Part shown: positions 15,794 through 58,064 of the stretch, one piece after another
Layout: each line of letters begins with the position of its first letter
Numbering within the stretch: position 1 is the stretch's first letter
Assembly: GCA_001414345.1 (NCBI GenBank)
Contig: LLCB01000014.1
Span: forward strand, 307,333 to 371,332
DNA from: Hymenoscyphus infarciens
Taxonomy: Eukaryota > Ascomycota > Leotiomycetes > Helotiales > Helotiaceae
Direction: 5' to 3'
Length of the DNA stretch: 64,000 nucleotides
The notes under the pieces: model-generated
The model's input: the letters and a program-made list of their open reading frames with translations, nothing else
Told to the model about the DNA's origin: nothing
The model's database searches: none
Made by a program: the position numbers and the translations under genes

Positions 15794-15825
<32 letters not shown>

Positions 15826-16730: not shown

Positions 16731-16732
16731 TA

Positions 16733-27344: not shown

Positions 27345-28830
27345 CTTATATGCCCTCTACTAGAGTTTTGAGCTAGTATTAACTTAGACTTAATACCGGT
27401 TTAATACCGGTTTAAGATATTAGTTATTTCTTAAAGTAGCTCTAATACGTTTTATAAAACGATTTAAGGTAATTTAAGCCGATTTATAAAACGATTCAAA
27501 GTAAGAAACCGATTTATAAAACGATTTAAGGTAATTTGACCTGATTTATAAAACGATTTAAAATTATAAAACGATTTAAGGTAATTTAATACGATTTATA
27601 AAACGATTTAAAATTATAAACTAACTTATAATCTAGCTCTTAACTTAGTTTAAAATAGATGTCTAAAATAAAGTACTTAGAAGAAAAAATAAAAAGTCTA
27701 GAGAGAGTGTTTTTTTTTAAAGGCGATTTAAGCGGCTTTTTATATATAAATCTTATATAATTTTTATATTTTAGTAGTCCTTAAATTTAGAGCTACTAGC
27801 GTATAGGTTTTAGTATGACACGTGACTAAAGTGGGTCACATAGTGGGGCGTGGCTTTCGTACCAGGGTCGCTCTTGCCGAACACGGTACGCTACGTACGC
27901 TACGTAACCGTCAAGACCTAGTATATAGGCCACCCCTATCTTCGACTTCGACGACTTTAACTTTGACTTCGACATCTTTAACAATAACATCTTCGACGAC
28001 GACGACGACGATAACCATCTATTAATATCGCCATTGTAGGCATCGTAATCCACGTCGTATTCGTTGCGTTCGCTACCCCGGTTAATTCTACGTCGTTGCA
28101 CATTTTACGGTCGGACTTTTAGTAGAGCGAATCAGAAGCCTTATATTTATTATCTACGTTATCGCTGTCGCTGTCGCTGTCGTTATCGCTATCGCTATCG
28201 CTTTTATAGTACGTACTGTTTCTACTCTTACTTCCTAAACTAACGTACGTGCCTTATAGTTTCCGACCGACCGACTAACCGATAGAAAGACCGAACGATC
28301 CAACCAATCACATCGCGGCATATATACAGGGATGACGTTATTTGGGTCGGTGGAGTATTCGGTGGAATCGGTGGAATTGGTGGAAGTAGGACTCGGGCAT
28401 TCGACGAACCAGGGCATGTTGTATAAGAGTAGTGTAGCTATGTAATATACGCCTAATCACGTGATTTCAGTCTTTTTTTATATGTATTCGCTAGTGATTT
28501 TAAATAGTTTTTAGTACTAATTTAAGGCTACTCTAATACTAAGTTACTACTAGTTTAAGGCGGGTCTAGAACTAAGTTAAGCTAGTTTAAGGCAGGTCCG
28601 ACACCGACTTAACTCACCTAACCTGGTTCGACTCGCTAAAACGAGTCGCGTTTTACTACTATAAATCATCTTAAGTCGTTTTTAAAGTATATTAAACCTA
28701 GTTCTTAAATTATTTTAAACTGCTTTAATCTAGTTTATAAACTAGCTTAAACACGCTTCTAGAATCAGTCTAAATCACCTTCGAACCCGATTCAACCCTA
28801 GCTTAAAACTCTCGCTAGTTGGTAGTAAAG
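27345..28830 (-). mobile_element. Family A copy 2 (inverted), 1,486 bp
   Basis: On the plus strand it starts CTTATATGCCCTC and ends TAGTAAAG, the reverse of copy 1, with TA on both sides (27343-27344 and 28831-28832). The AAACGATTTA/ATTTATAAAACG array (27450-27620), the CGACGA and CGGTC runs and the palindromes are all present in inverse order. Heavily RIP-altered outside the simple-repeat core. Confidence 0.78.
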
Positions 28831-28832
28831 TA

Positions 28833-32087: not shown

Positions 32088-32550
32088 CTTTACTACCAAC
32101 CAGCGAGGGTTTTGAGTCAGGGTTGAATCCAGTTCAACTCTGACTTAAGGTAACTTAGACTGATTCACGAAGCATGTTCGAGCTATTTTATAAAATATTT
32201 CTATAATAGATTAAATTAGTTTAAATTAATTTAAGACCTAGGTTTAACATAGTTTAAAACCGACTTAAAATGATTTATGATAGTAAAACCTAACTTATTT
32301 TAATAATTTAGAACTGATTTAGTGGTTTAAACTGGTATTAATCCTAAGTTAAACTATATTAAGAAATGGTTTAAATTATTTTATAAAACGACTTAAAGCA
32401 TTTTAAGAAATAGTTTAAGTTATTTAGTAATCTAGATTATTATATTATACTTAATTATATAAAAGTATTTAAGAGAATTAAAAGTAGATTTAAATCATCT
32501 AAGTTATTAGCTTAATCTTCTTTAATCTCCTAATATATTTCCACCTAATA

Positions 32551-32685
32551 ACAAATTTCTACTTAATTATAAATTTCTACTTAATTATAAATTTCTACCT
32601 AATTATAAATTTCTACCTAGTTATAAATTTCTACTTAGTTATAAATTTCTACCTAATTATAAATTTCTACCTAATTACAAAACTC
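32551..32685. repeat. 18-bp tandem array near the left end of the 17-kb element
   Basis: About seven copies of AATTATAAATTTCTACCT, with C/T variants between copies. It lies between the left terminal region and the coding relics. Confidence 0.8.
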
Positions 32686-33309
32686 CTCTACTATATCGTA
32701 CTTTCACTAGTTCCTACTATCTGTATAATCTAGTCTAAGCCTAGGTATTTCTAGATAATTAGAAGGAATATTATATAATCTAATATTAGCTATATATTAT
32801 AAATAAGGGGAAAAGATAATATTACTAAGCTACTTTGCTATAGTCTAAACACCTGTATAAAATATAGTTGTTATTAAAACAGAGGCTAGACTTAGCTTAC
32901 TACTTTTCTACTAGATTTGTAGCTTAGGTAATTCCTACATTATGACAGTTCTAGTAATAGTGTTATTAAATTAAATTCTATTTCTCAGTGTTAATAATAG
33001 AACTGTCTACTATAGTAGCATAACCTTAATTCAATAACATCCTCCTCCTTAATAGTTTCTCCTTCTTTTTAGCTATACTAAGTATATAATAAATTATAAG
33101 AGATAGTTAGTTAGTTATTAGATGTTTATTAACGTCGTTGTTTAGATTAGTAATATATATAAGTCTTAAGATTTATAGTGTTATAGTTTTCCTAGTGTCT
33201 ACTAAATACTACCTGAGTATTAAGATAAACCTCTTCTACTCTTATTAATCTATATCCTTCCTTAACTACTTATATCTATTTAGAACTAAATTATTATATA
33301 TTTATTATA

Positions 33310-33925
33310 TACGTTGTCAAGGAGGAGGCTTGATAAAGAGGCTTAATAAGGAGGCTTAATAAGGAGGCTTGATGAGAATATTCGGATCTTAGAGAAGGCT
33401 TAATAAAGAGGCTTAATAAGAAGGCTTGATAAGGATATTCGGATCTTAGAAAAGGCTTAAGAAGGCTTGTTTAGAACTTAGATTTAGAACTTAGATTTAG
33501 AACTTGTATTTAGAACTTAGAAAAGGCTTAAGGAGGCTTGATAGAGATATTCGAAACTTAGATTTAGAACTTGTATTTGGAACTTAGAGAAGGCTTAAGG
33601 AGGCTTAAGGAGGCTTGAAGAGGCTTAATAGAGATATTTAGAACTTAGATTTGGAACTTAGAGAAGGCTTAAGGTATAGGCTTGAGGTATAAGCTTAAGA
33701 AGGATATTCAGAACTTGGATTTAGAACTTAGAGGCTTGATAAGGATATTCAGAACTTAGAGAAGGCTTAAGGAGGCTTAAGGAGGCTTAATAGGGATATT
33801 TAGAACTTGGATTTAGAACTTAGAGAAGGTTTAAAGAGGATATTTAGAACTTAGATTTGGAACTTAGATTTAGAACTTAGATTTAGAACTTAGAGAAGGC
33901 TTAAGGAGGCTTAAAGAGGATAGTA
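33310..33925. repeat. Compound minisatellite of two motifs
   Basis: Two motifs alternate irregularly over 600 bp: AAGGAGGCTTAATAAGG and TTAGAACTTAGATTTAGAAC, with ATATTCGGA linkers. Unit order varies, as in repeats that grow by slippage and local duplication. No coding frame is kept. Confidence 0.8.
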
Positions 33926-34649
33926 AGCTATAAGCAGATCTTAGGTAAGCTATTCTTAATATCTCAACTAATAATAGTTCTACTAAATTCTCTACTTCCC
34001 TCTAAGTAAGTCCTATTAATTAGTGCTAGTATTACTCTTAGGTCTATATTCCTATCTATTTATTACTACTATTTAGGTATTCGTTGGTTTAAGGATTAAA
34101 GTTATTAGACTTAAGAAAGGTTAATAGTCAATAGTTATTAGGATCCTCTTACTGTTTATACTATGGTTATATTAAGTGCTTTATATAAGGCTTCTAATTT
34201 AATACTAATATTATAGTATTAAGACTCGTTACTTAAAAACAATTACATGTTATAAAGATATATTATAACTTTAGTATCTATTTAATATTCTTTTAATACT
34301 TAGACGTTATTAAGTAGTTATTTGTAGTAGGTGTAGGTGATGGTGTTTTTAGAAGAGGATAGTTAGTCATACTCTCTAAAGACCTAGGTAAAGTAAGTAA
34401 CTATACCTACTTCTTAATATCTATCTTATAGGCTGAAGTCTACTATTTATAGATACTTATAATAATAATTATTATACCTTTTTATTTCTACTATTATATA
34501 TCTCTTATATACTTACTTCTAGAATAAAATTTCCTTATAATATATTCTTCTAGATATTAAATTTTAAAAAAGCCTAGACTAGAGTCCTCTCTCCTGTATA
34601 TTAGAAGAACATAATATTTAAATTATATAAAATCTAGTTACTATATATA

Positions 34650-36900
34650 CTTTAGGTAAAGACTTTAGCTATCTGCGGCCTCCTTTTTAAAACTATCTAG
34701 TATAGGTAATATATACTCTTTCCCCTTCTTAATTGATCTTAAGCTATAAATCTTAGTATTACTAGTAGTAGTATATACTAGCAATCTTAAAGTTAGCTCT
34801 TTAGTATATATATAATTAAGAATAGTTAATAATAAGAAAGCGTAGAATTTTCTCTAGAATCTAATTACAAAAACCTACTTAAGTTTATAGATGTTATACT
34901 AAGAATGTCTTATAAAATCACTAACTATAAAGGTCTACTGGTGTATATTATATGTATAAGATATCTTAGTAAACTAGTTTATCTTTTTGTTCTTTATAAA
35001 GATAACGATATTTTAGACCTGGTACTCTTCTTAGAATGTGACCTTAAGCTACTGGTAAAAGACTAAATCTATAGCTAGTGTAGATAGAAAGAGCTATGAT
35101 TTGACCTTTAATATTCTTATAAGGTAAGATAAAAGATGATACTTTTTTAAATCTACTCTTATTCTAGTATATCTATCGATCTTTTAAAGGTCCTTGGTAT
35201 TAGTAGTATAGTCCTTGATATCTTACTTAGTTAATAATACAAAACTGTTGAAGAGTTTAAGATACTCGGATTTAATAAATTTAAGTAGGTCTAATAACTC
35301 TAGAAAAGCCTTTACCTATAATCTTATAAAACCAAGTTATATAGATATAACAATATTATCTTTAGCTATTAAGTACTCTATTAAGTTTACGGGTACTACT
35401 GTATCTACTTAATCTTTTTATATTATATACTTTAATTTACTAGCTAGAATATTAAGGTTTATAATATATATATATTCAAAGGTGTTATTAGTAATATATA
35501 TACCTATATAAAAGTTTGGTAACTTATAAAGTTTATTCTATTTATCTAAGCTAGTTTTTATTACCTTTTTCTTTAATTTTAAGAGCTGTTCTAGGCTATA
35601 CTTAGATATATAACTCTAAACTTCCTTATTAGAATTATACTATAACATACTATTATTATCCTTATTCTTATCTCTATTTTCTACTATTATTAGATTAGTA
35701 ATATCTAGAACATTCTTATCTACTTCTTCTTTAACTGTAGCTTCTCTTGCCTTTATATAATTAATAAGTAAGAGATATAACTGTCTTAACCTTAATACTT
35801 CGTCCTCTACTTTATAACTTAATATTATGTAAGTACATAACTCTATAATAGTAAGGGTTTTAGTAATATTCTTAAATAAAGTAATAAGTGTTATTAATCT
35901 AGTTGTATAAGTATATAGAAGTGTATACTAGCTTATATATGTTAATAATATTTAAATAAAACTTAATTTATACTAAGTACTTCTATTATAATAGTATAAG
36001 ATTAGAGGTATAAGAATAATTATATAGCTAGTTTCTAAAAATAACTATAAGTAAAGATAATAAGGTAACTAAATACATAGCTAATTATATAAAAAAGGGA
36101 AAGAGTATATAGCCTTTATAAATTCCTTTCTTTTATTTACTATAAGGATCTTATTTATTAATATTATAAAGATAACTCTACTAATACCTCTTTATTTAGA
36201 GTATAAGATATTATAGCCTCTATTAAGTATAAGATCTAATAAATAAGTAATCAGTACAATAGTAGCTTCTTCTTTATACATACTAAGCTACTAGAAAAAA
36301 AGAGCTCAGGTCTTATTATACTTAATGTCTTACTCTTTTTTATAAAGATAAACAGTATTAAAATAGTAATGTCTATACTCTTTAGTATTAAAGTCTAGCT
36401 TATATTAGTTCTATGAAAATATATAATATATATAATATCCTAAATCTGCTAAAAAGTATATAAAAGTAGAATTGTTAGCTACTATTAGTATATCTCTAAT
36501 AACAGTGTAGAGAAAGGCTTTTACTAATGTATAAGTGCCGTTAATATTGATTATAATGCTTTTAGCTAAAGTCTATATACTAGGAGTAATATTCCTAATA
36601 ACTTCGTTAAGCGCTACTCTATATAGGCTTAATATTAAAGTAAATGTATTTGTAAGCTTATGTCGTTTATTATAGTTAAGATATAATAGTATAAGATAGA
36701 ATCCTTTTAATACCTTATATATATTTTAATAAATGCTGAAGTTGTTAATAAATAATGTAAGTAATAGCAAGAGATATAACTAAACATTTTTAGAAAATTT
36801 AATAAGATAATTACAGCTATATATAAAAACCTTAATATCTACTCTTAATAGATAAGTAAAGTAGATAGGCCTTATAGTCTCTTAAATAAGATTAACTTAA
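34650..36900 (-). pseudogene. Tnp2/Plavaka-like transposase relic
   Basis: The minus-strand frame is long and interrupted almost only by TAA/TAG. In order, from about 36870, it reads NNFSIYQNIYKVLKGFYL, NKRHKLTNTFTL, SLYRVALNEVIRNITPSI, FLYTVIRDILIV, ADLGYYIYYIF (about 36410-36456) and LDFNTKEYRHYYFNT. This order and spacing match the transposase Tnp2 family found in fungal Plavaka-type elements. There a phrase like GFYL is followed by TLGPHG, then a GD(I/M)P segment, then a Cys-x-x-Cys zinc site and a DF-T-x-x-(G)RYH phrase. Here the two Cys are Tyr, as RIP would cause. Further downstream, to about 34650, the same frame stays open but is not recognised. The upstream part of the gene may extend to about 38400. 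Confidence 0.6.
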
Positions 36901-38879
36901 TACTTTATAAATAACTTATTAAGTAGATTAACGACGTTTATAGAAGGATTATTTAAGTCTTATTACTAGTTTATATTAATCTTATAAATATAGTAGATAA
37001 ATTATTTAAGGATCTTTATAGTACTTATTACTAGTATAAATTCTTTAGCCTCTATTCTTAACTTTTTAGATAAATTAGAGAATAGCTCTTTTATATTCCT
37101 TAATATAATGATCAGTTAAACTATGAAGATAATTTCTTTAAACATTTGAGCTAATAAACGATAATCTTGCTTAATAAAAGTAACTTATCTTCTATTATAA
37201 TACTTAACTATCTTAGTAAATCTAATAATATTTCTAGGAATTATAATATCACTATAAATTATATAAGTAAAGTCCTTAGAAGTCGTTATTGTAAATAATC
37301 CCTAAGATTGAGAATTCTAAAATTTAATAAGTTTATTAACGTAATAAGTAAGACTAAAATATATCTTTTTAGTAAGAGCTACTATAGAAAGGATTTTTGT
37401 AGATAGATCTATTAGATTATACTAGTAGTACTAACCTTTTTACTTAATATATCTACGTTTAGCTCTTTATCCTCAAATTTGTCCTTTTTCGCTTATTATA
37501 AGGGTTAGGACTTTGTTAAGATTAACTTTAATTAGCTAATATATTATATAAAGAATTAGTAGATATATACGAAGTTTATACTTTAGTATATCTAGTTTTA
37601 TAGGAAGCTAGAATTCGTCTTTGTCTTTGTCTTTTTCTTTGTTAACGCTTATAAAAGCCTTTGCTATATACTATACCTCTCTTAGCTACTAGTAATATAA
37701 TTGTGAAATCGAGCTTCTTTTATACTATAAACTAAAAGCTAGATAAAAGTTTAAGAGAGGCTTATTACTAAGTATCTATTAAATAGACTCGACGTCTAAG
37801 TTATCTAAATTCTATAGAAGAAGCTCTATTAAGTAGTAGTTAAATACTATTATATTAATATCTCTATTAGACAACGTACTGCCTTTATTGTCAGTATTGT
37901 TATTATCATTGTTCTCTAAATCAGCGAACATAGGTGCTAGAACTGCTTTATTAATTATATTATATATATTTTATAGAAGTTAGAAAGATAAATACTTCAT
38001 ATAAAAGAGTAAGTATATTATTATAGTATACTACGATCTTATTCTTAAAATTAGCCTCTTCAGCGGTATCGTTTTACTCTAATTTAGCTACTTCTTTAAA
38101 TATCATATACTCATCTTTATAATACTAAGTAGGCTCTATTATGAGGATTTCTAATCTATTTACTATTTATATATTAAGTATTACTTCTTTATCTTTAATA
38201 TAAATAGGTAATGTAGAAATAAGATTAATCTCTACCTCTACTTCTTTATATCTATCTAGTTCTTATATAGACTTATTATTAGCTATATTTCTACGTATAG
38301 AAAAGGCCTATATAGCCTTACGACGACGACCTAAGCTAGCTATATTAGAAGGACCTGCCGTGGTATACTATTTAATAGTTTCTAATAATTTAGCTATACG
38401 TTTTATAGTTAAATTTAAAAATAAGGTATAGAGTAGTATTTTAAAATTATATAGTATTATGTTAAAGTTATTATGTTAAAGTTACTTATGCCTTCCTTTC
38501 TCTAGTAGAAATTTAGTAATAAAGAATTAAAAAAGCTATGATATTATATTTTAATATAATTCAACTATATTAGTAAATTATAGTACCTAAGAAAGGCTTT
38601 TATAGAAGAATAATTAATTAACTTTTATTACTACTAAATATTACTCTATTAATATTAAGGAAAACTACTATATAACTAGTAAATAATATAAAAAACCTAC
38701 GAGATAGGAGTAAGCTTTATAATAGATAGAAGAAAGAAAAAAGAGAGTATGTATATTAAGTATTATTAGGTATTAGGAAAACGCTAATAGACCTCTATTT
38801 ATATGAAAAATAGATAAAGAAAGAAAAGTAATAAATAAAAAGGAATATATAAGTGGTTATCTCTACCTACTCTATTATA

Positions 38880-40500
38880 GATAACTAAAGAAAGCCTTCC
38901 CTAGATATACTTATAAGCTATTAAAATCATTGTCTAGGTCTAATTTATTAAGCGCTTTAGTAATATCTACTAAGCTCTACTTATCTAGTTCTATTACTGC
39001 TATTATAGTCTCTTAAATAATATAGAGTATATATTCTACGAGCTACTGAGTATTAAGTGGTTACATATTATAAGAGATATAGTTATTAGGTATATAAACA
39101 AGCTCTTCTTAGATAAGAAACTAATTATCAATAACGTACTCTTTATTACTATTAGTACCTACGACAGTGTTAACCTCCTTATTAAGCTCGGATATTACTA
39201 TTAGTAAGTATTTATAGATGTTATTTAGAATAATACAGTTGTAAATAGTATTAATAATATGTTAGTGAAGGTAGTAGACGTTGTCTAGTTAACTCTATTA
39301 GTAAAGTCGGCTTAGTTCTTAAGCTTCGATACCCTAGTTTAATACTAGGTCCTAAGACTAACCATAGTAATATAGCCCTTAGAGATTAGCTCCTCTTTAA
39401 CTAATATAGTACTCTCTGATAAAGGTGAAGTATGAATTAGAATTAGTTATAAATTTATTAATTAGATCCTAACGTTTAAGTATATCTAATTCAGATATAA
39501 AAGTAGTATAGTTAATATCTAAAAGTTATAGAATACTATAAACGAGGAGCTGAGTAGCTAGGAGGCTATATTAAATAGTTATCTTTTTTTACTTTTAAAT
39601 TATAATTAACAAGATAATATAATAAGCTTCTCTGATTTTAGGGGCTCTAGCTCCTACTATATATAAAATCCTAAGCGTGTCTATCTTATTAGATAGAGTA
39701 GTAAAGGCTTATCTACCTTAATTCTTATATAAGTGTAGCTATAACTAAAGTATATAAGAGTCCTACTTTTATTCGCTTAGAGACCGCGAATATAGAGCAT
39801 CCTTAATAAGCTTAAACTATATAGAATTAGAATATAGTAGTAGGTAATAATACTTTTGACGGTTCTAGACTAATTTCCTATCCTCTACGCAACAGTATAT
39901 AAGCTTTCTTATTAAGAGATATAATATATAAGTATACTTTAAAAGCTCGTCTAGTATAAATATACTATATAACTAGTAGCGTATAAGATAGATAAGGCTA
40001 TCTCTAATAGAGTTCTTAGTCTTAGGATTTAAGAAAGACTAAGTATACTTAATTATAATGTTCTTAAGAATATAGCTAAGGTATAACCTCTACTTTACTA
40101 GATTACACTTAAGATCCTGTTTAATTTTACCTAACTAGATATATTTCTTAATATAATAAGTAGTCTTATATAAAACCTATATAGGATATCTATCGTCTAG
40201 CTTAAATAGGTTTATTTATAAATTAACGCTCTATTTAGCTAATTAGTCTAGTAATTCCTAGTTCTTTCTAGCTTTTAATAAATAAGCGATCTTAAAAACA
40301 TTGGTAATAGAATTAGGAAAAATTTTTATATTAGCCAGGATGTAGAAGCTGCTAAAAAAACGTACTAGGCTATTCCCTTCTATATATAGATTCTTTAGAT
40401 TAGACGCTTCGTCTACGTAGTCTCTAGTAAAATAACCACTGATATAGCCAGGCTATATTAGGTCTAGAGTAGTATAATAGTCTAGATATTATATAGATTC
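38880..40500 (-). pseudogene. Long decayed frame of unknown function in the 17-kb element
   Basis: Reading the minus strand with TAA/TAG treated as mutated Gln/Trp codons leaves one frame open for about 1.6 kb. It contains phrases such as YISGYFTRDYVDEASNLKN, NLFKLDDRYPIQVLYKTTYY, ANLQGLYYYGQSQ and YVIDNQFLIQEELVYIP. The near-absence of TGA stops and the continuity argue for a former gene. I recognise no domain. It could be a second gene of the element or an upstream part of the same transposase transcription unit. Confidence 0.45.
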
Positions 40501-43179
40501 CTTTAACTAGTTATTTTTCTGTTACTAGAGAGAAAGGCCTTATAGTCTATGCTGACCAGTTATTATACTAATAGAAGAGATAATAACTATAGCTATATTA
40601 TCTTTATCCTCTTTGTCTAAGAGAGAGTAAGTCTACTAGTTAGTCTTAATTAATTCTCTAACTACTTTAGAATATATACTATATATCTTTGCTTATTTAT
40701 TATTATAGTATATTAAAGGAGTTAAGAGATTTGAGAACTTCTTAAAAGTAGCTACGTTTTAGAGAATCAACAATAGTAGACAAAGGAAGTACTATAGCTA
40801 CAATAGTCTACTATTCTATTTAAGCTTAATAGGCTTTTAACTTATTCTCTTATATTATTTCTAGAGGTGCTTTATTATATAATAAGATTTCTTAAGACTA
40901 TAATAAACTACTAGAGCTTTATAGCGAACTAATACAGACTATTATTAATTAGTACTTATATACTTAGGAAAGGCTTTTCTAGATATACTTTATAAATAAA
41001 TCTAATTATAGATAAGGTCTTTTTTATATTAACCTTATCTCTAAGTAAGGTAATATTATATTCTAACTCCTTAATTACAAATATAGTATTAATAGCTATA
41101 ATCTATTATAAGAGAAACAAGTAAGTAATAAACATTTAAGAGAAAATAAGGTAATTAAGATTTAAATATATCTCTTAATATATACTAAAGTAATTACTTA
41201 GCTTAAAGATAGAGTTCCTTATTATGTTTTTAATTATTTATAAAAGGTTTTATTCTTTAGTTATATGTTCTTTAAGTTTAATTATAGTATTATTTATGAT
41301 TTCTTTAACAATATTGTTCTAATATTTTATCTTTATTTTCTAAATCTTTACTAAGAAGTTAGGTTACAACTCTAGTCTTTATACTAATCTCTTAATAAGT
41401 ACTAGATCGTTATTTTAGTAGGTAGCGATTTATAAGAGTATATATACGCTATATATAGTAGACTTGTTTTAAATATTATTAGGATTCTTAGTAGAGATAA
41501 GCTACTCTTAATTAGATTATCTAATATCCTCCTCTACCTTATCTACTTTATTCTCTCTACTAACGTCTCTTTTATTAATAGTAGTATTCTTTATTTTAGT
41601 CTTATCTACTTTTATAAATTCCTTCTTAGATGTAGTATTATCTTCTATAAATATATACTTTATAGGTGATTTTATAGATTAGTGCTTAGTAGGGGTAGCT
41701 TTAAGGCTAAGTAAGCCTTACCTAGTAGTAGCTATACTATGTTGAAGACGAGATAGTAGGTTATTTAAGTCTAGTACTAACTATTTAAGACTAGTTTAAG
41801 AAATATAGTACTTACCTTTCTTACTCTTTAATACCTTTCTAGAGGAATTTACTAGTTCTACGTCTTTAGCTACCTTCTTTATCTATAGTGTCTTTATATA
41901 GCTTATATATTATAATATCTACTAATAGCAGTAGAGATTCTAGATCTACTAGTTAATCTTGTTTTATATTATATTACCTATATAGTTAGTAAAAAGACTG
42001 TTCTTTGTTATAGTTATCTTATATATATAAAATAGAAATCGAGTCTTACACTCCTTTTCTCTCTAATTACATATATTAATAATAGACGTACTATATTTTA
42101 CTTACTAGCTAGACTCTCTAGCTTCTAGTTCTTATTATACTTTATTTAATTTAGATCTCTATTAGCTCTTTCTCTCTTTAATATTTTATTTAGTTTAAAG
42201 TTTTAAAATATACTCTTATAGTTCCTTCTAGAAAGGCGTCTACTACTTAGATTATATAAATTCGTCTATTGCTTTTTTAGAGCCTAAGCCTAAATATTTA
42301 ACATATTCTTTTAGATTTGTAAACTTCTTTTAGTCCTATAATGGATTACTATATAAATAATCTGTGTTATTACTACTACTAGCAACTAAGGCTTTAGTAT
42401 ATATAGCTTTTAGAGGTAGTATGTTAAAAAAGGCTTTATTATACTATATTCTTTAATAAAAAGGTATTATAAGGTAATATAGAATTAAGAATAGTTTCTA
42501 AAAGGTAAGGTAAATACGATCGATCTTATATAGTAGCTTAGTATAGCTACTAGTAAAGCCTTTTCTATATATTAGTAAGATAGCTTTTTATTTAATAAGA
42601 GTGTACTTACTAATATTATAATAGAGGATCGTTTTACGCTCTTGTTTAATTAAGTTAATTGTATCGTACGTAGTAGATACTAGTATAGATTAGTAGATGT
42701 TGAGTATAATATATTAGTTAATTAAGAGATTATGAAGTTATAAGGTTATTAATTTTTTAATAAACGTTATAAGGCTCTAGTACTCTACAATAGTAGCCTT
42801 GTATACTCTACCTTTTCTAGTAGAGGTAGGGTAATATTTATATTTAGTAAGAGCCTCTCTTACCTCTAAGATCTTTTATAAATAAGCTTTATTTTATAAC
42901 TTTAAGTATTCTAGAATATGAATAAATATGAATAGTTAATAGAGAATTCGTCTATAAAAGGCCTTACTAACCTAATCACGTGCCTTTTCACCTATATTAA
43001 ACTTATAAATCTATAATACTCTATCCTTAAACTTATATTAGATTAATTCTAGTAGTGCTACTATCCCTTATCTAATAACTTAATAAACTATACAAGTATA
43101 AAAGGCTAACTATTCCTATTTCTTAGTAAGTCTTATTATTATTATCTATTATTTTCTATAATATCTTTTATTAATATAT

Positions 43180-44950
43180 TTCCTTCGTTATTATTAAATA
43201 TATACTTATTTTTTAGTAGTACTAGTATAATAGTTTATAATTTAAGTAAACCTAGTAATATTAAGTTCTAACCACCTAAGTCTAAGAAACCTACTATTAT
43301 ATCTACTAAGAAGATACTATCTTATTCTATAGATAAATTAGCTAAAACTTATAAGCGAGTATAGAACCTAGATAATACTAGTAAAGAAGAATAGATAACT
43401 TCTTCTCTTATACTAAAAAAGGTATTTTATATCTACTATCTACTATTTACAGTCTTTATACTAAGAAAGCCTTTTTTAGGTAAATAAATCTAAGAATAAG
43501 TCTAAAGAATAAGTACTATTAGCTTTGATTAATAAACTTTTAGATAACGTAACTAGTGTAGGAAGTTAACGTAAAGTAAAATATACTTAAAAGCTATCTT
43601 AGGAGAGCGATTGTTGTATACTTTTATAATAATCTTAAAAGCTATCTTAGAAGAGTAATTGTTATATACCTTTATAATAATCTTAAAAGCTATTATAGAA
43701 TAAGAAAACCTACTTAACTAATGATTTCTATGTAGAAGAAAATTAAGATAAAGAGTTAGCTACTTCTTATCTATTATAATAAGAATAATATAAAAATAGT
43801 TTTCTAGAGGGTGTAGATAATACTTAAGTTAATAATACTTGTTATCCTATATGTCCTTTTTAATTGAATAATATGTATGAGGAGGAGCTAGAGTATAATA
43901 TAGTAAATTAACATAAATAAGATAATAATAGTCTTACTCTTAACTTTCTAGATAAACTATCTAAGTTAAAGTCTTAGAAGTTAACTCTTTTCTTTAAAAG
44001 TAAGATATATCTAGGAAACCTTTTCCTAGAGTACTCTATTAACTAATATACTATATTCTAATAACTCTACTAAGGTTATAGTAAAGGTATCTATTATTTT
44101 AAAATCTAAGGTAATAAAGGCTAAACTAGCTTCTTCTAAAGTAAGAAAAACAGTAGTAGTAGCCTTCTAAACCTCTCTACACTTACTAGTAATATCTATT
44201 AAAGAGTAAACCGTGGATTATTATAACTTACTTTCTAAAGACGTTGAAGTTATTAAATTTTCTATTTCTAAGACTGAAGCTAACTATAAACTTAAGCGGC
44301 TTAACTAATAACTATTCTTAGCTACGTTTTACTATAAAGATATTATATTACTAGGTATAAAAGTATATTATCTATATAAGAAGTGTTATCTTTTAGTAAG
44401 AGAGGCTAGTAAAAAGACTTTATAAGATATAAAGAATTAGAAGCCTTAGACGTATGATTAGGTATTTTAAATCGTCGTCTAAGTGTTTATAGATAATATA
44501 GAGTAGGATAGATTAACTAAATAAGATAACGTGTTTAATACTGTTAGATAGGAATATTAGAAGTATTAGTTACTTGTATTATTCTATTTTACTTACTAAT
44601 TAGTAGATTTTAATTAAATTACTTAAAAGGGTTATTGTTAGTTGAAATATAAGTTCTTTTACCTAAGAAGGTGATAAAGGCTTACTTAGAATAGTTATAT
44701 ATATCTATATACTTATACTGGCTTATATGAATGTCTTATATAATTAAGGTGTTTTATTAGACGACTCTCCTTATAATCGCTAATAGGCTATGATGTTTTT
44801 AGAAAGTATATATAAATATAAGAAGATTACTAAGTATTATATTATTAAGTACTTTCTTTTATAGGATGTTAATCTTATACTAGCTTCTAAGATAGTATCT
44901 ATATAGTTAGATATTAACGAGATAGGTGAGGCTAATATCTTAGATAGGTT
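43180..44950 (+). pseudogene. Decayed plus-strand frame with residual Cys motif in the 17-kb element
   Basis: The plus strand reads SNPSNIKF, PPKSKKPTIISTKK and, after 44260, TEANYKLKRLN, LYKKCYLLVREASKKTL and NVFNTVRQEYQKYQLL. Stops are nearly all TAA/TAG. The part around KKCYLLV may be what is left of a Cys-rich zinc site. The strand is opposite to the transposase relic, so two genes may converge in the element. Function is unknown. Confidence 0.35.
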
Positions 44951-46149
44951 CTTTTTTAATAGTAATAAAGAGAGGGATAATAAATTAGGAGAAGAGTAAT
45001 AATCCTAATAAGGAAGAGAAAAGCTTTTCTTAGGGCCTCTTTAGTCTAGGTATCTAGTGTTTAGTATCTTAGTATTTAATTTTCTACTTTTTGCTTTTTT
45101 TTATTTTTTCTATCTTTTACTTTTTCTTATTACTTTTACTTTTAAGTCTTTTCTATACTTTATATATGTTAGTTATATTAAGTTGAAAAGCCTTTCTTAG
45201 GTATAGGTTAGTATTATCTTTAATAATTATATAAATTTATAAGAGAATGATAGAATGAAGGAATAAGTAAATAGAGAGAAGATGTTTTAGTGTTAATTTG
45301 TTTTATTATACTTAGTAGAATTTGCTATTTATTATTATACTTTAGTTATTATATTTTATTTATAGTAGGAGTTTAGGGTTAGTATATTATATTGTTTATT
45401 TTGTATAATACTATATTTCTTGTTCTATGTAAATAGTAAAGATTTGTTTTATACTTTGTAATTGTAATACCTTACTCTTGTTTTTTAATAATATAGGTAT
45501 ATTTTATGGTTGGACTTTTAATAAAAAGAAATAATACTCTAGAATACTTAGCTATTTATAATTTATATACTAGAGGTGAATTAAGTTATGTATATTAGCT
45601 TCTAGATATCTTGTAAGATGTAAGAATAGTAATTTTAGTGAAAAAAATAGTAGTAAAATAAGGATATATTTAACTATACTAAAATTTAAGGAACTTTATA
45701 ACTAAGAAATAGTAGTAAACTTTATTTGAAGACTTTTAAATTAAGATATGATTAGAGGTATAATAATCTTATAAGACTATAATTTTATATCTGGTTAAGG
45801 AAACTTCTACTCTTAAAGGTAAAGTGTATATACTAAGCCAGAGAGCTATTAATACTACTATAAATATTCATTAGTAGGTTAGTTATGTGTCTTAATAATA
45901 GAAATAATAAGTTAAGCTTTTATATAACGCTTATATAACTATATATTAACTAATTAAGCTACTCTTTCTATAAGACATTTGTAACTTTGTTTAATTATAT
46001 TTAAGTAATATAAAGTTAAATTTATTATAGGAAAGCTAGCTAATTAGAAGCTATTTATAAAGGATATATGCTAGAGATTAGTTTTTATGGCCTAGCTTTG
46101 AAGTCTTAAGTTTACGATATAACAACTCTATAATTTAATAACTCTACGA

Positions 46150-46360
46150 TTTGTAATATAATAACCTTGTGACGATTTATAAATATGATTTACAAATACG
46201 CTTCTTTACGAATACGCTTTTTTACGAATACGATTTATAAATACGCTTCCTTATAAATACGCTTTCTTATAAATACGATTTACGAATACGCTTTCTTATA
46301 AATACAATTCCTTGTAAATACGATTTATAAATGTGCTTTTTTACGAATATGATTCTTTAT
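46150..46360. repeat. About 21-bp tandem array (ACGAATACGCTT type)
   Basis: About ten degenerate units built on TTTATAAATACGCTTTCTTA with C/T and A/G variants. AT-rich and non-coding. Confidence 0.75.
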
Positions 46361-46519
46361 AATAATTTAACTCTACTTAATCTTAACTCCTCTCTCTACA
46401 ACTAATAGCTGCTTTTATACTGTAACGAATGCTCCTTTGAATTATATATGAATAAATAATACTAAGATAGGTATAAACTATAGGAAAGTAAAGAGGATTA
46501 GAGACTCTAGAAGACTAAC

Positions 46520-46680
46520 ATGTTATAAGAGATAGAGGACAAGGATATTATAGAAGATAGAGGATAATAATATTATAGGAGATAGAGGACGATAATATTA
46601 TAGGAGATAGAGAACGATAATATTATAAGAGATAGAGAACGATAATATTATAAGAGATAGAGGACGAGGATATTATTAAG
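46520..46680. repeat. About 30-bp tandem array (GAGATAGAGGACGATAATATT type)
   Basis: About five units alternating GAGATAGAGGACGATAATAT and TATAGGA/TATAAGA linkers. Purine-rich on the plus strand. Confidence 0.75.
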
Positions 46681-46964
46681 TCTTAATAGCTTCTTAACTT
46701 AGAAAGGTGTTTATTATTTAATTCTATAACACAGCTAGAACTAAAACTGAACTTAGGCTTGCTTTATAACGCTACTATGTATATATAGTTACGCTGTAGC
46801 TAATAACTAACTTTTTATAATATCCTTTTTACACGTTTGATCTTAGCCCATGCTCTTAGGTAAGACTATTAGAGGCAGTAGCGGTGTAGCTAATCGAATA
46901 AATCTGCCTATTTATAATTTAATATAGATAAGGTCGTCTAATCTATAGCTTTAGTGTGAAACCT

Positions 46965-47130
46965 CTCTTATCTATGAAACCTCTCTTATCTACGAAACCT
47001 CTTTTATCTATGAAACCTCTCTTATCTATAAAACCTCTCTTATCTATGAAACCTCTCTTATCTATGAAACCTCTCTTATCTATGAAACCTCTTATCTATA
47101 AAACCTCTTATTTGTGAAACCCCTTAGTTA
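46965..47130. repeat. 18-bp tandem array (GAAACCTCTCTTATCTAT)
   Basis: About nine units, the first seven nearly identical. Pyrimidine-rich on the plus strand. Confidence 0.8.
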
Positions 47131-47319
47131 TCTACGAAGCTTTTTATCTAGTGTTATATTTAAGAAGGTACTTATTTATCTAGTAGGTATGTATCTAAGC
47201 TTCTCTTAGATATATATTATAGAACTCTATTTGATACTCTATGTACTCTCTCTATTCTACTAGAATGTCGAGAGATTGTAAGTCCTTGTAGTAAGAGTTG
47301 ATATTACCTCTATAGATTT

Positions 47320-48300
47320 AAAAGCTCTTTATCTACTAACCCTCTATTTATAAAGCTATCTACTAACCCTCTATCTGCTAGCTCTCTACTAGCTCTCTAC
47401 TAGTTCTCTATTTATAAAGGCTCTCTATCTATAAAAGCTCTTTATCTGCTAGCTCTTTAGCTCTCTATCTGCTAACCCTCTATCTATAAAGCTATTTACG
47501 AAGCTATCTGCCTACTCTCTATCTACTAGCTCTCTAGCTCTCTAGCTCTCTAGCTCTCTATTTGCAAAGCTATTTGCGAAGCTATTTACAAAGCTATTTA
47601 CGAAGCTATTTATAAAGCTATTTATAAAGCTATTTGTGAAGCTATTTATAAAGCTATCTGCGAAGCTATTTGTAAAGCTATTTACAAAGCTATCTGCCTA
47701 CTCTCTAGCTCTCTATTTATAAAGCTATTTACAAAGCCATCTGCTAGCTCTCTGTCTATAAAGGCTCTCTATCTACGAGCTCTATATCTATGAAGGCTCT
47801 CTATCTATAAAGCTCTCTAGCTCTCTAGCTCTCTAGCTCTCTATTTACAAAGCCATTTACAAAGCCATCTACGAAGCTATTTATAAAGCTATTTACTAGC
47901 TCTCTGCTAGCTTACTAGCTCTCTACCAGCTCTCTATCTGCTAACCCTCTATCTACGAAGCTATCTACGAAGCTATCTGCTTACTCTCTATCTGCTAGCT
48001 CTCTAGCTCTCTAGCTCTCTAGCTCTCTATCTGTAAAGCTATTTATAAAGCCATTTATAAAGCTATCTATCAGCTCTCTATCTATAAAGGCTCTCTATCT
48101 GTAAAGGCTCTTTATCTATAAAGCTCTCCATCTATAAAGCTTAAAGCCATTTATCTACGAAGCTATTTATCTACTAGCTCTCTACTAGCTTACTAGCTCT
48201 CTACTAGCTCTTTATCTACGAAGCTCTCTATCTACGAAGCTATTTATCTATAAAGCTCTCTATCTACAAAGCTATCTACGAAGCTATTATCTACTAGCCT
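47320..48300. repeat. Nearly 1 kb of short AGCT-based repeats
   Basis: Three short motifs are mixed: CTCTCTAGCT, CTATTTATAAAG and TATCTACGAAGC. They form blocks of local expansion. The base composition is strongly strand-biased (C/T-rich plus strand with A interruptions). No frame is conserved. Confidence 0.8.
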
Positions 48301-48542
48301 TATATATTATTACTAACTAGCTTTATTAACTTACTCTTCATCTCTCTCGCGTACTCCTACTTATTATCGCTATATTAGGTAGATTTAGGTAGTTTTATAG
48401 ATAGAGAATAAATGATTTTCTTATAGCTTGCTTTTATATTAATTCTCGTTTTAATTAAGTATCTGTCTAATTATCTTATAATAGTCTTAGAATAAGACTA
48501 AGTATCTTTAATAATATATTAAAGGTATATTAGGATAATATA

Positions 48543-48800
48543 GGTTAAGTTTTTAGAAAAGTTATAATATACCTTAAGTAAGTTAAAGATATAGTTTAAG
48601 TTTTTAGAAAAGTTATAATATACCTTAAGTAAGTTAAAGACATAGTTTAAGTTTTTAGAAAAGTTGTAATATACCTTAAGTAGGTTAAAGATATAGTTTA
48701 AGTTTTTAGAAAAGTTGTAATATACCTTAAGTAGGTTAAAGACATAGTTTAAGTTTTTAGAAAAGTTATAATATACCTTAAGTAAGTTAAAGACATAGTT
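48543..48800. repeat. 51-bp tandem array, five copies
   Basis: Five almost identical units contain AAGTTTTTAGAAAAGTT, ATAATATACCTTAAGTAAG and TTAAAGACATAGTTT. Differences are single A/G changes. It lies 270 bp inside the right end of the 17-kb element. Confidence 0.85.
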
Positions 48801-49066
48801 TAAATCACGAACTCGATTTCTAATACGAGTTTATAATACAAAATGCTTTTTAAAGTAAGTCTAATATGTTTTATAAAACATTTTAAACCGATTTATAACC
48901 TAGCTTAATACTACTTTCTATCTTAAACTCGACTTAACCTATATTATAAACTGATTCGAGGTAGCTCGAGGTGGCTTATAACACGACTTAAATCGCTGAA
49001 TCGTCTCCAACTCTATGTCGAGTTAGACTTAACCCTATCTCAAAACCCTCCTAGAGGGCATGTAAG

Positions 49067-49549
49067 TACTTAGTCTTATCTAAGCCTTTTATAAAGCCGT
49101 CAACTATATCGTCTTTTATACTAACATATACTAGCGTTATTCAACTACTATCTATTACTTCTCTTATAAAGTAATATATAATATCAATATACTTTATTCT
49201 CTTATAAAACTCAGGATTATTAGCTAGTTTCTAAGCTAATTCACTATTAGTTAGAAGAGTAGGTATAGTAGTAGTATTATTAGTTATAAGTTTATTAAAG
49301 TAATCTACTAGGTTATTTAAGTAGAGCACTTCTTTAACTACTTCTTTATAAGCTATATATTCGGCTTTATAGCTAGATATAGTAACGGTTTTCTGTAATA
49401 TAGTATTCTAGCTAATAATATAGTTATTTATATATGTAATATAGCTACTAGTACTTTTTTGACCTATAATACAACCTTTTTAATCTGCATTAGTAAAGGC
49501 CTTTAGGTCTAGTCTATTATCTATAACATTATAGTATAGCTCTAGAGTA
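49067..49549 (-). pseudogene. Copia RNase H segment
   Basis: The minus strand reads, from 49549 down, LELYYNVIDNRLDLKAFTNAD, then QKSTSSYITYINN, SSYKAEYIAY, NPEFYKRIKYIDIIYYFIRE and DDIVDGFIKGLDKTK. These are the standard copia RNase H blocks in order. A few TAA/TAG codons replace Gln or Trp. It is bounded on both sides by TA-flanked insertions. Confidence 0.85.
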
Positions 49550-50949
49550 CTTTACTGCCAACTAGCGAGGGTTTTGAGACGGGGTTGAATCCGGTTCAAC
49601 CCCGACTCAAGGTGATTTAGACCGATTCTAGAAGCGTGTTCGAGCTAGTTTATAAACTAGATTAAAGCAGTTTAAAATGATTTAAGAACTAGGTTGAATA
49701 TGCTTTGAAACCGACTTAAGATGATTTATGGCAGTAAAACCCGACTCGTTTTAGCGAGTTGAACCGGGTCATGAACCGGGTCAGGTGAGTTAAGTTAGTG
49801 TTCAACTTAATTCTAGACCCGCCTTAAACTAGTAACTTAGTATTAGAGTAGCCTTAAATTAGTACTAAAAAAATCACTAGCGAATATAAAAAAAGACTGG
49901 AATCACGTGATCAGGCGTATATTACGTAGCTACACTACTCTTATACAACATGCCCTGGTTCGTCGAATGCCCGAGTCCTGCTTCTACCAATTCCACTAAT
50001 TCCACCAATTCCACCAATTCTACTGAATGTTCCACCGACCCAAATGACGTCATCCCTGTATGTATGCCTCGATTTGATTGGTTGGATCGGTCGGTCGGTC
50101 GGTCGGTCGGTCGGAAACTATAAGGCACGTACGTCAGTTTAGGAAGTACCTTAGCGGTGACCCCTAGCTTAGAATACGGTGTATAGACAGTGGAAGCACC
50201 GTTTTTTTTACTAAACAGTTTCTTACTATTTGCTAACTGTATACTGTTAATAAGAGTAAACGTTTTAAATTATAAGTAGTAAATTAGTGTTTTATAGTAG
50301 ATTTTTTATAAAGATTATATTAAAATAAGCGGTTAATAAAATGTATAGTTAAATATTATTTAAGGTGTTTAGAAAAGAAACTATTAATAATAAATAAGTG
50401 GTTAAGAAAACGTACTATTAAATATTATTTAAGTCGTTTATAGAATAATCTAGTTTATAATTTTATATAGTTAGAGTATAGTATATAAAGAGTTTACGAT
50501 GATATTACGTTTTAATGGTTTAAGGGGTTAACGGTTTAGAATTCTTAACAGTTTAAAGTCCTCTTATTAGCTAGGCGAATTCCAGCTACTCTAGCTCGGC
50601 CTAGCTCCTAGCCAGCTTCTAGCCAGCTCCTAGCTCCTAGCTTAGATAATTGTAAAGCTATTTATAAGAATTGGATATCCTAGTTAATATAAAGTAGCTA
50701 ATCACTGGTGTTGATGTCTAAGAAGTTAAATTCGCCTAAGTTAAGTAATCTAGGCTATGCTACATTGTAAACTAGTACTATATATAATATCTTGTTATAT
50801 ATCCTAATATTAGGAAGTCCGATATATTTAAATTAGCTAGAGAGTTTATAGATAGGAATATTAAGAGTATTATCTACTCTAGATATGTTAATAACTAGAG
50901 TAACTATAATAAAGAGGCGGGTTTCTAGTTACTTTGTAAATTAAGTAGT

Positions 50950-52560
50950 AAAAATACTATTAATTCTTCTAATTAAGTTTCTATAGTAATAGATAAAGTC
51001 CCCTCTATAATAAATATAGCGCTTTTTACTATAAAAGTATTAGTATCTAGTTAAAAAAGTGTAGAAAAGAAAGTGTAGTACTAGTAGTACTATAAAGGTT
51101 AAAACTTTACTAAGTCCTAAGGTCTTCTTAGGCTGCCTCCTAGGCTATAGTGTATCTTAACCTTAGACCTAAAAAAAGTCTACTCTAACTTTGTTAGTAA
51201 CTATAATATAAATATAAGATTTTATTATATATAAATATAGAAGAAAGTAAGTATATTACTTTTATTTAAGTTTAGAATTATAAAACTATTACGTTATTAT
51301 AATATAGCTTATTAGGTTTAAGGGTTACTAAGAGGTAGATAGGCGACAAGAGCTTAAAGAGCAGCGCTAAAAAAGGACTTTATAAAATCTCGACTTTTAT
51401 AGTAGCTAAAGAGATCTTAAAAGAGAGGGTAATAGGTGGTTTACTTACTTAAAATTATAAGCTAGCTTCTTATACTAATAGATAGGACAATTTCTAATAC
51501 TAATAAGGTTATAATAGCTGTAATCCTAAGAATATATATTAATAAGGGCTTTTATAAAAGCTTAATTTACCTTGTCTGCTTTAATTAGAAGTTAGAGACT
51601 AGTATAGTAAAGAGAAGCTATACGGCTAATTACTACTAGATATATATAAGAGCGGTTAGATTAGATATTACTAAGAGCTTTACTCTCTTCCTCTAAATCT
51701 ATAGCTAGTTCTTATTCTAATTTAAGGAATAATATAGTAAATAAGCTAGGATAATTAGTATAGAGACGTATAAATTACTAAATTAAAGCTAGCTTATCTT
51801 ACTTTATTATACCTAAAATAAGAAGGCGAGTAGTTATTTTAAAATTGACTTATAGAAGTAGATCTCGTTTGGGATTTATATAATTAGTATTATAAATCAA
51901 GTTTTTGAATTTCCTATAAAGTACCTAATTAGTTATATAAAGAGTAAGTAGAGGTTTAAAGACTTACTTATATATAAACTCCCTAGCTTAGATAGAATTA
52001 ATCCTAGGAGTACTATATACTTCTATCATTTAGAAGAAATAAAGTCTAGTATAAGCATTTAGGCGAGCCTAGTCTTTACGTATCTTAGCTCTATAAATAG
52101 TCTTTAAAGCCTTAGCTGCTATAATACCACTACTACTAAAATCTATAGTATCTGTATCTTCTAATACTAGATAGCTTAGAATCGTTGCTACTAAGCCTCT
52201 ACAGCTTACTAAGGGTAAAGGAACTAGTATATTTTAAGGCGTACTCCTTAGATTAAGCTTAGCTAAGACTACTAATACTTTATATAAAGACTAGAATAGA
52301 CGACGAGATATCTTAACTATAGCTTGTAAATTTTGCCTATCTATAGCTAATAATTTGTCTAAGAGAATAAGTATATTAGACTTAGCGATATATATATATA
52401 CTATGATAATAGTATTAACTATAAAGTTTTAAGCTTAAGGATTTATATCTAAGGTAATTCTAAAGACTTACTTAATTCCTTAAATAAAGAATAGCCTAAT
52501 ATAGAATTCCTAGAGAAATACTTAAAGAAGTACTAGTATAATAATAGACTATTAACAATG
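50950..52560 (-). pseudogene. Decayed long frame in the 7.6-kb TIR element
   Basis: From about 52560 down, the minus strand reads AIVKISRRLF, SLYKVLVVLAKLNLRSTP, LEDTDTIDFSSSGIIAAKAL, ARLNAYTRLYFF, AREFIYK and VFKPLLTLYITN. It ends with CPIYQYKKLAYNFK and LLPSLLRSLQLL. Stops are TAA/TAG only over long stretches. It looks like one large former protein. I know no matching domain. Confidence 0.4.
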
Positions 52561-52835
52561 CTATTACATAGAATAAGAGCTGATATAGTAGGCTAGTAAT
52601 AGAAGGGATTACTATCTAAGAGAGAAAGGAATTCTTTTTAAAAGAGTAACGTATTTGACTAAAGCGTTTAGAGTAAGTATAGAATCCTTAAGTATAAAAT
52701 ATATTAATTTTATAATACTATTATACTTAGAGTACGCTAAATTAATTAGATTATATAGTATAAGATTAAGAGCTAGAGTTAAGTACTTTGTCGGTAGAGG
52801 CTTAATAGAAATACCTATAAATAATTAGTAATAAT

Positions 52836-52884
52836 TAGTAATAAATAAACAAATAAATAAATAAATGAATAAATAAATAAATAA
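52836..52884. repeat. AAAT simple repeat in the 7.6-kb element
   Basis: An imperfect run of AATA/AAAT units (AATAAATAAACAAATAAATA type). A second run of the same type lies at 56418-56448. Both sit beside possible coding segments and might lie in introns on the minus strand (TTTATTTATT after a GTAAGT at the second site). Confidence 0.6.
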
Positions 52885-55800
52885 TTAAATTACTTACTAG
52901 TTTAACTTATAAATTCCTGCTACTAATTTAGACTTAGCTTAGCTTCTATAGCTTTACGTTATCTAAGAACTTTATAGTAATATTGACTATTTAAAATAAT
53001 ATCATAGTTAATTATATAACGTATTTCCTTTAGGATATTACAAAGCTAGTAAGAAATATTACCTCTAAAAGCTATAATACTAGCATTCTTATTAGCCTCT
53101 TTTATATTAGTAGTATAATTAAGAATAAAGATATAAATAATAGTTTTTATACTATTAATTAATATCTTAATACTCTACTAAAGTTCTAAAATAGATTAGC
53201 TAAGTAACTTAAAGACATCTATAAGGTTACTTATAGAAAAGTTAGAATTATAAACTTAGATTTTAGTAGATTACTTACTACTATATAGTCTAAGAGAAAG
53301 GAGGAGTATATTAACACAGCGATTACGTTCTTTATTAGTAAGCCTAGTAAAGAATAAATATATACTTATTAAAGATCTATTTATATTTCAATATAAACTA
53401 AAACTATTAGAGAAGTAAAGAAGAGGTATACTTAAAACTGGTTTTTACTACTTTTAAGAGCTTAATCTAGTAAGTAATTAATCTTAGCTATAACATTATA
53501 ACTCTAGCTTAACACATACTATATATAAAGTATTAAGAGAGTAGTATTATATATTACTATTACTTATAGTCTCTTAAATCTAGCATATAAATCTAAGACC
53601 CTAGCTGTTATAGTACTTATTTTAAGGCCTAAATTTACTCTAAAATATATAAAGAAAAGTAATTTAAACTATAGCTTAGTATACTACTAGTTTAAGAATA
53701 TATGAAATATTATTCTTAAGAATAACTAGTTCTCTAGGTATAAGGGGTTAAGAAGTACTAGGTGTGTTCTAAAGCTAGGAAAGCTACTTAAAGTATTATA
53801 CTTTAATAGTAGTAGATCTAAGAGGTCCTCTATATTTCTAGATACTACGATAATCTCTAGTAATTACTAGAATACGTCTTATATAGGTAGTATCTTAAGA
53901 AGTATAATAATAGTATCTAAGATTACTATAAAAGTAATTAACTAAATTAGAAGGATATATAGGGTATAGTAGTGTATTATCGATAGCCTTATAGTATATA
54001 AACTCTCTAGAAGTACTTCTAATAGAAGAATACTATTAATCCCCCTTCTAGGTTTAAGAAGGAAGGTTAACGAAATAACTAAGTCTAGTATATAATTTAG
54101 CTCTAATTTCTAGTATAGAAAGAAAGGATTTAAAGAGCTTAACTAGATTAAAGTAATATAGATCCTTAATAGTAGTTTTGATTAAGCCTTTATTAGCTAT
54201 TATTTCGTCTTTATTAGTTTGTTTTTCCTAATTTCAAGAAGTCTAAAGCTTATTAATATTTAAGAGGATTAGCTTCTTATATATCTTAAGTAATAGTATC
54301 TAAGTATTAAGCTTATGTTTAAGAGTATTAATATTATTAGAAAGCTTCTTAATTAAAAGATAATCTACTATAGATAATATTTCTCTAAGAGTAGTATAAT
54401 AAGAGCGAGAAAGTCTAGTAGTTTTAGTCTATAAAGTAAATAGAAGTTAAAAATCCGAGAGTAAAGGAAGAGCTTTTTAACGCTTTAAAGGAATAGGTTC
54501 TAAGTTATTTAGAGGTCTAGAGAGTGGTAGAGGGCCTAAAGGTGCTATTAAGAGAGAGGCTAGAGATAGTACATTTATTATTAGAGATTAAGTAGCTATA
54601 GTAGCTAGAGAAAGGGTTTCTAGAGAATCTATTTCTTTAATACTTTAAAGAGGAATATTAGTATTAAAATTGTTATTTTACTACTACTAATAATCTAAAA
54701 CCTTAACTAGTTCTTAAAGCTAGGAGAAAGCTAGACTATTAGTAATAGTATTACCTAATTTAGAGTCTATATCTCTTTTATACTTAAATAGCTACTTAAC
54801 TACTTTATTCTTATTTAAATCCTTTATTAATTAGAAAATAAGCTATAAAATAATCTAGAAATAAGACTTATAATAATAGTAGTTCTATTATTATTATTAT
54901 TATTATCTAATCTACTAGGAAAATTATAACTAGCTTTAAAGCTAGGCTCTTCTTCTTCTATATAAGGTCGTTTAAAGAGGCCTACTATAGTGAGTAATAA
55001 AGTTTAACAAGGTAGGGCAAGCTTATTAAGGTCTAACTTAGATTTACTAGGTCTCTAGACTATACAACTACCTAATATTACTATAGTATATATATTAAGC
55101 GTATAGTGTTACTACTATAGTATAGATAAGTTGTAATAGAGAGGTAAACTAAAGAGGCAAAATAGAGAGGTAAAATAGAGAGGTTACTACGAGCGACCTT
55201 AAAACTCTAATTTTAAGCCTTATTAACTACCTTATATAATTTTAAATTACTATAACTTTAGAATATAAGATTTAAAAATACTTAAAAGTATATTTAATAC
55301 TTTAAGAAAAGATATTAATATATAAAAAAATTTAATTTATTAATTAAAATCATAATTCTAAGGCCTCTAAAGTTATAATCTCTTACCTCTTTATAAATAC
55401 TTATAAATCCTAACTTAACTATTCAAAGTTACTTTTAAATTTAACTTTAAGACTATAAGTAATCTTTTTAGATTATTACTTAATACTCTAAAAATAATTT
55501 AAGGTTTCTAGTCTAACTTTAGTAATAATTTAGATATCTATTTATTAGATTTATTTAGTATAGATAGAATAATTAGCTTAATAGATTTTAGCGAAGTATT
55601 AAGTGATTTCTACTTCTATGTTATAGGACTAGGAGTATTAGGATTATGTCTTATATAAGACATATTTTATATAAGATAGTTATAGAAATACTAATACTAG
55701 CTAGAACCTATTTCTAATTCTAGAATAAAATATATAAGCTAAGAATACTATAAGTATAATAGTTATTATAAAAAGAGGTATAATACAAGTAAAATAGATA

Positions 55801-58012: not shown

Positions 58013-58064
<52 letters not shown>

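What the first reader, a model, noticed from the sequence alone, without database searches (positions are those of the whole stretch)
32088..49066. A 17-kb TA-flanked DNA element with a Tnp2/Plavaka-like transposase relic appears to be the parent of the family A miniature elements
Seen: its termini and inner end motifs match those of six 1.3-1.8 kb copies in this window, and all have TA at both sides. A minus-strand relic inside has the phrase order of Tnp2-family transposases. Known: Plavaka/CMC-type elements carry Tnp2-like transposases and have short TIRs and non-autonomous derivatives. Inferred: the short copies are deletion derivatives moved by this protein. Its size, with seven tandem arrays and more than one former gene, is unusual for a cut-and-paste element.
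Basis: partly seen in the sequence, partly recalled or inferred. Interest (0 to 1): 0.8.

Follow-up and report, generated by a model that had tools for sequence, protein, structure and literature searches.

The report
Decayed 17-kb fungal cut-and-paste transposon
A long, mutation-silenced DNA transposon of a fungus, present in several copies, shares its ends but not its inside with many short elements that probably borrowed its transposase; it is a new variant of a known kind.

Summary
The 17-kb unit is real. Window 32088-49066 (16,979 bp) is a discrete insertion flanked by TA. Its two flanks, joined with one TA, recreate an uninterrupted repeat present elsewhere in the genome (24 of 43 rows run through the junction; read base by base in 4 of 4 fetched loci), so TA was duplicated. 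Three more near-full-length copies exist. One clear gene relic lies at 34602-38450, minus strand (85 stops in 1283 codons; 166 and 162 in the other frames). Pfam and direct protein searches find nothing, but a profile comparison (E 1.1e-5) and a mutation-aware score (30.3; 200 shuffles maximum 23.0, 60 negatives maximum 19.4) link its core to a Rhizophagus protein family whose poor model resembles RAG1. PF18759 Plavaka proteins do not match. The short family A copies share about 200 bp at the left end, 34-40 bp at the right end and the TA; their 1-kb interior is not in the long element, so 'deletion derivative' is not supported. Size is not exceptional: published relatives are 11.5 and 20.5 kb. 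A second TA-flanked element with a similar relic lies at 50149-57721.

The parts
32088..49066 (.). 17-kb element (16,979 bp), TA at 32086-32087 and 49067-49068
   Evidence: empty site; sibling copies
32088..32302 (+). left terminal region shared with short family A elements
   Evidence: 75-83% identity, best E 7e-47
49029..49066 (+). right terminal region shared with short family A elements
   Evidence: 34-40 bp including TA, 82-88%
32533..33925 (.). left subterminal tandem arrays
   Evidence: present in C6, C9, C112 with other unit counts
46177..48803 (.). right subterminal tandem arrays
   Evidence: present in C6, C9, C112 with other unit counts
34602..38450 (-). transposase-like gene relic
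   Evidence: 85 of 1283 codons are stops, other frames 166 and 162; same frame in sibling copies and in paralogues about 33% identical
36426..36767 (-). block of the relic (residues 562-675) that matches the Rhizophagus family around the two D positions and C(2)C
42900..45100 (-). possible second gene relic, identity unknown
   Evidence: 61 stops in 733 codons against 95 and 83; dip of stops at the same place in 3 of 3 copies tested; only sibling copies match
15101..16732 (+). complete short family A element with both TA
27343..28832 (-). complete short family A element with both TA
58846..60685 (+). complete short family A element with both TA
49548..58719 (+). short family A element in two halves (49548-50148 and 57718-58719), split by the element 50149-57721

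Best explanation
A degenerate class II (cut-and-paste) transposon, 17 kb long, of the broad CMC/RAG1-like clade (EnSpm, Mirage, Chapaev, Transib and relatives), inserting at TA with a 2-bp duplication. Shown: boundaries, TA duplication, repeated copies, decay typical of repeat-induced point mutation (RIP), one transposase-like gene relic. Inferred: its DDE transposase recognised the short imperfect inverted ends, cut the element out and joined it at TA; the arrays beside both ends bound the transposase or an accessory protein, as subterminal repeats are thought to do in CACTA elements; the same or a close enzyme moved the short family A elements, which share its ends and TA target but carry another interior (non-autonomous partners, not plain deletion products). 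RIP then silenced the copies examined.
For: Empty sites and TA duplication; sibling copies; inverted ends; relic frame and diverged paralogues; profile match to the Rhizophagus family E 1.1e-5; mutation-aware score 30.3 against 15.3 sd 1.7, maximum 23.0 in 200 shuffles, and maximum 19.4 in 60 negatives; similar scores in 2 of 2 sibling copies and 3 of 3 paralogues tested; RAG1 chains among the matches of the family's model; an independent TA-flanked element in the same window with a similar relic; RIP indices.
Against: No Pfam, PDB-sequence or direct database hit; null against PF18759 proteins; the C-terminal part of the relic is not clearly above its shuffles; the family's model is poor (mean pLDDT 45.5) and no Foldseek match reaches E below 0.001; the H(3-4)H motif and the last E were not located; TA duplication is also the mark of Tc1/mariner elements (recalled).
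Confidence: 0.75

Rival explanations
1. The short family A elements are moved by, or derived from, another autonomous element with similar ends, for instance one that carried the diverged transposase paralogues; the 17-kb element is a cousin, not the parent.
For: Short interiors are absent from the 17-kb element; the genome holds paralogues about 33% identical; ends differ by 17-25%.
Against: Divergence between short and long ends is about that among the short copies themselves; no 17-kb or short-type end adjoined the paralogue relics in the fetched stretches as the end of the same element, but those stretches are short.
Confidence: 0.3
2. The mover was another enzyme, for example a Tc1/mariner-type transposase; the relic is a passenger.
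For: TA duplication is the hallmark of Tc1/mariner (recalled); the possible second gene is unidentified.
Against: The element's only clear gene relic is transposase-like; a second TA-flanked element, with other ends, also holds such a relic; TA duplication is described within the CMC-related clade as ESTA (PMC12730594).
Confidence: 0.12
3. The 17-kb interior is an unrelated insertion into a short family A element.
For: The ends are shared.
Against: C6, C9 and C112 carry ends and interior as one unit at other sites; no short-element interior flanks the 17-kb interior.
Confidence: 0.02

Closest known systems
Rhizophagus transposase-like family (P0001 and others; several named BAH domain-containing protein)
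   Same: Block around the two D positions and C(2)C is collinear with the relic
   Different: Undecayed, from Glomeromycota; its ends and target site were not examined; BAH-like domain not seen in the relic
Plavaka (PF18759)
   Same: CMC-related, fungal, 2-bp duplication in PlavakaA, 2 or 3 bp in PlavakaB (PMC12730594, passages)
   Different: Relic does not match PF18759 proteins; termini differ from TGT..ACA and CATCA..TGATG
ESTA (EnSpm-like with TA duplication)
   Same: TA duplication and RAG1-like transposase (PMC12730594, section 3.1.6 read)
Sly1-1 of Neurospora crassa
   Same: Large CMC transposon with a transposase gene and a second gene, RIP-decayed copies of about 12 kb (PMC4592977, passages)
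   Different: 11,534 bp; duplication has at least three bases; sequence not compared
Tgmt* CACTA element of soybean
   Same: 20.5 kb, Tnp2-domain transposase, repeats beside both ends (PMC2613891, passages)
   Different: CACTA termini, 3-bp duplication, plant host

Membership tests
Cut-and-paste (TIR) transposon | Inverted ends and target duplication with an empty site | tested here: met
CMC/RAG1-like clade | Two D positions and C(2)C of the DDE core | tested here: met
   Aligned block with states equal to, or reachable by RIP from, those of the Rhizophagus family; first D reads N in the six sibling rows
CMC/RAG1-like clade | H(3-4)H and last E | tested here: inconclusive
   Alignment ends before them; C-terminal part not above shuffles
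Plavaka | Transposase matching PF18759 | tested here: not met
   decay lowers sensitivity
Plavaka | Termini TGT..ACA or CATCA..TGATG | tested here: not met
   Ends are CTTTACTRCC..GGYATRTAAG; published termini from PMC12730594 passages
Tnp2 (PF02992) | Match to PF02992 | tested here: inconclusive
   No hit, but the control genomes did not ring and the gene is decayed
ESTA | TA duplication | tested here: met
ESTA | Transposase grouping with ESTA in a tree | not testable with these tools
   ESTA sequences are in a supplement that was not available
Deletion derivative of the 17-kb element (short family A) | Interior made only of parental sequence | tested here: not met
   a stretch of about 50-80 bp shared with some shorts is the exception

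The most novel reading that the evidence does not exclude
A lineage of large, TA-inserting, RAG1/CMC-like transposons in an RIP-active fungus, distinct from PF18759 Plavaka and nearest to a BAH-bearing Rhizophagus family, with at least two families in this window (16,979 and 7,573 bp), one of which mobilised many short satellites that share its ends but carry an interior of other origin.
Probability: 0.35. Interest if true: 0.55.

Novelty: new variant of a known kind. Interest (0 to 1): 0.4.

Why it matters
It shows that a heavily RIP-decayed element can still be bounded exactly, through empty sites in older repeats, and assigned by mutation-aware profile scoring where ordinary searches give nothing. 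If the assignment holds, it extends TA-inserting RAG1/CMC-like transposons to an RIP-active genome and gives a case of short satellites that share only the ends of a long partner.

Tried and rejected
Pfam on the relic and on six read-through rows: nothing. Two protein-database searches with the relic or its alignment: nothing. PF18759 and PF02992 in the own genome: nothing, but no control genome rang, so no proof of absence. PDB by sequence: nothing for the relic alignment A1 or the PF18759 set A3; four weak, seemingly unrelated rows for the Rhizophagus set A2, best E 0.0088. BFVD fold search of the Rhizophagus model: no match at E 0.001. Second gene: only sibling copies match, no Pfam, null against the Rhizophagus family (14.8). 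C341 looked like an empty site but lacks about 190 bp around the junction and was not used. Of the diverged loci, L034-L036 were fetched in the hope of undecayed copies; they have no long open frames (GC 0.18-0.29). Assembly artefact rejected: copies lie on several contigs. A restored consensus, which the finding proposed, was not made.

Full report
Observation. The window lies in an unnamed 65.6-Mb genome of 742 contigs (C47:307333-371332). Window 32088-49066 begins CTTTACTACC and ends GGCATGTAAG, with TA on both sides. Near-full-length sibling copies lie at C6, C9 and C112 in the same order; C389, C257, C465 and C341 hold partial or rearranged ones. C257 lacks window 33055-38027 and matches only to 45886, so it is an internally deleted and right-truncated copy. 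Joining the window flanks with a single TA gives a sequence that is continuous in many copies of a repeat: of 43 rows, 24 run from query position 13 or less to 453 or more and 2 more cross the junction (only 40 of 106 candidates were scored). The junction was read base by base in 4 of 4 fetched loci. That this flanking repeat is Copia-like is my reading of its coding remains and comes from no call. The element is a discrete insertion that duplicated TA. Nested short elements in C112 and C389 sit at sites that are intact in the window copy, again with TA duplicated. In 19 of the 46 sources held, 28 of 29 left ends and 16 of 16 right ends have TA.

Ends and arrays. The two ends are imperfect inverted repeats (alignment score 20.5; 500 shuffles, maximum 11.0). 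Tandem arrays lie near both ends in the window copy, C6, C9 and C112, with differing unit counts; in the window copy the one exception is the 48-bp array at 43586-43700, which C6, C9 and C112 also have, and C9 and C112 show one or two more inner arrays (those inside the nested short element of C112 not counted). Subterminal repeats are a mark of CACTA elements (PMC2613891, passages read).

Decay. The window copy has GC 0.256, TpA/ApT 1.59 and (CA+TG)/(AC+GT) 0.33, against 0.45, 0.80 and 1.19 in window 1-13000, as expected of RIP.

Gene relic. On the minus strand, 34602-38450, one frame has 85 stops in 1283 codons, the others 166 and 162. The frame is kept in the sibling copies and, at about 32-40% identity over 94 to 1056 aligned columns, at diverged loci in C741 (two), C216, C257, C307, C30, C703 and C737 (rows for six of these contigs' loci with siblings aligned). 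It was an old protein gene, not a chance open stretch.

Identity of the relic. Pfam, PDB by sequence and two direct protein searches found nothing. A third search, with a query typed from recall, returned 2450 proteins, 120 of them listed: Rhizophagus proteins, mostly without a Pfam name, and PF18759 Plavaka proteins. I aligned 14 listed proteins of each kind: A2 (11 named as Rhizophagus, 3 unnamed) and A3 (all 14 with PF18759). A2 matches the relic alignment at E 1.1e-5, probability 82%, over 253 columns; A3 does not (E 0.56). A mutation-aware codon score gives 30.3 for the relic against A2. Controls: its other two frames 14.9 and 14.0; 200 codon shuffles mean 15.3, sd 1.7, maximum 23.0; 60 frames of other stretches maximum 19.4. 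C6 scores 27.0, C9 26.4, C741a 33.9, C741b 28.2, C216 32.9 and window 52500-54800 27.9, against 15 shuffles each with means of 14.7-16.5 and a highest value of 22.4. Against A3 the relic scores 14.5, and C741a, C216 and the 52-kb relic 13.8-17.8. The matched block, residues 562-675, covers both D positions and C(2)C; where residues differ there the states are RIP-reachable. The C-terminal part alone scores 17.6-19.5 in three copies against shuffle maxima of 18.1-21.5 and is not counted as support.

Short family A. The three complete short elements share with the long one about 200 bp on the left (75-83%), 34-40 bp on the right (82-88%) and scattered subterminal repeats; their roughly 1-kb interior is absent, apart from two weak short matches of the copy at 58846 (48 columns 83%, 114 columns 69%). 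Some other shorts share stretches of 32-80 bp with about 45448-45554. At least 21 of 96 rows cover 1-1632 of the copy at 15101 (40 of 302 candidates scored). They are best read as non-autonomous partners moved by the same or a closely related enzyme.

Second gene. 42900-45100 minus has 61 stops in 733 codons against 95 and 83, with a dip of stops at the same place in 3 of 3 copies tested. All 18 rows of its genome search lie in contigs that hold copies of the element; identity unknown.

Comparison and novelty. Large CMC-clade elements are known: Sly1-1 of Neurospora (11.5 kb, two genes, RIP-decayed copies; PMC4592977, passages) and Tgmt* of soybean (20.5 kb; PMC2613891, passages). TA duplication in this clade is described as ESTA in rust fungi (PMC12730594). 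The listings showed no title or abstract describing an element with these ends, but they cover only the open library. I rate it a new variant of a known kind.

Noticed in passing
window 50149-57721: A separate 7,573-bp TA-flanked element with 13-bp perfect inverted ends CCTTAGCGGTGAC..GTCACCGCTAAGG, inserted in a short family A element, holding a transposase-like relic at 52.5-54.8 kb minus (score 27.9 against 14.7); its left 1,452 bp recur at C570 and C581, 91%.
   Followed up: partly
window 31475-32087 and 49069-49547: The 17-kb element sits inside a repeat with at least 24 copies in the genome; by my reading its coding remains are Copia-like. C250 and C539 hold this repeat interrupted by other insertions near the same place.
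   Followed up: partly
window 45474-45533: A stretch of about 50-60 bp inside the 17-kb element recurs, 83-90% identical in the best cases, in a number of short elements but not in the copy at 15101; origin and meaning unexplained.
   Followed up: partly
window 9665-12783: Open, undecayed pieces of an M16 peptidase gene on the plus strand, in the GC-richer left part of the window.
   Followed up: no
P0001 residues 259-380 (Rhizophagus relative): The Rhizophagus transposase-like family appears to carry a BAH-like domain just before the first D position.
   Followed up: partly
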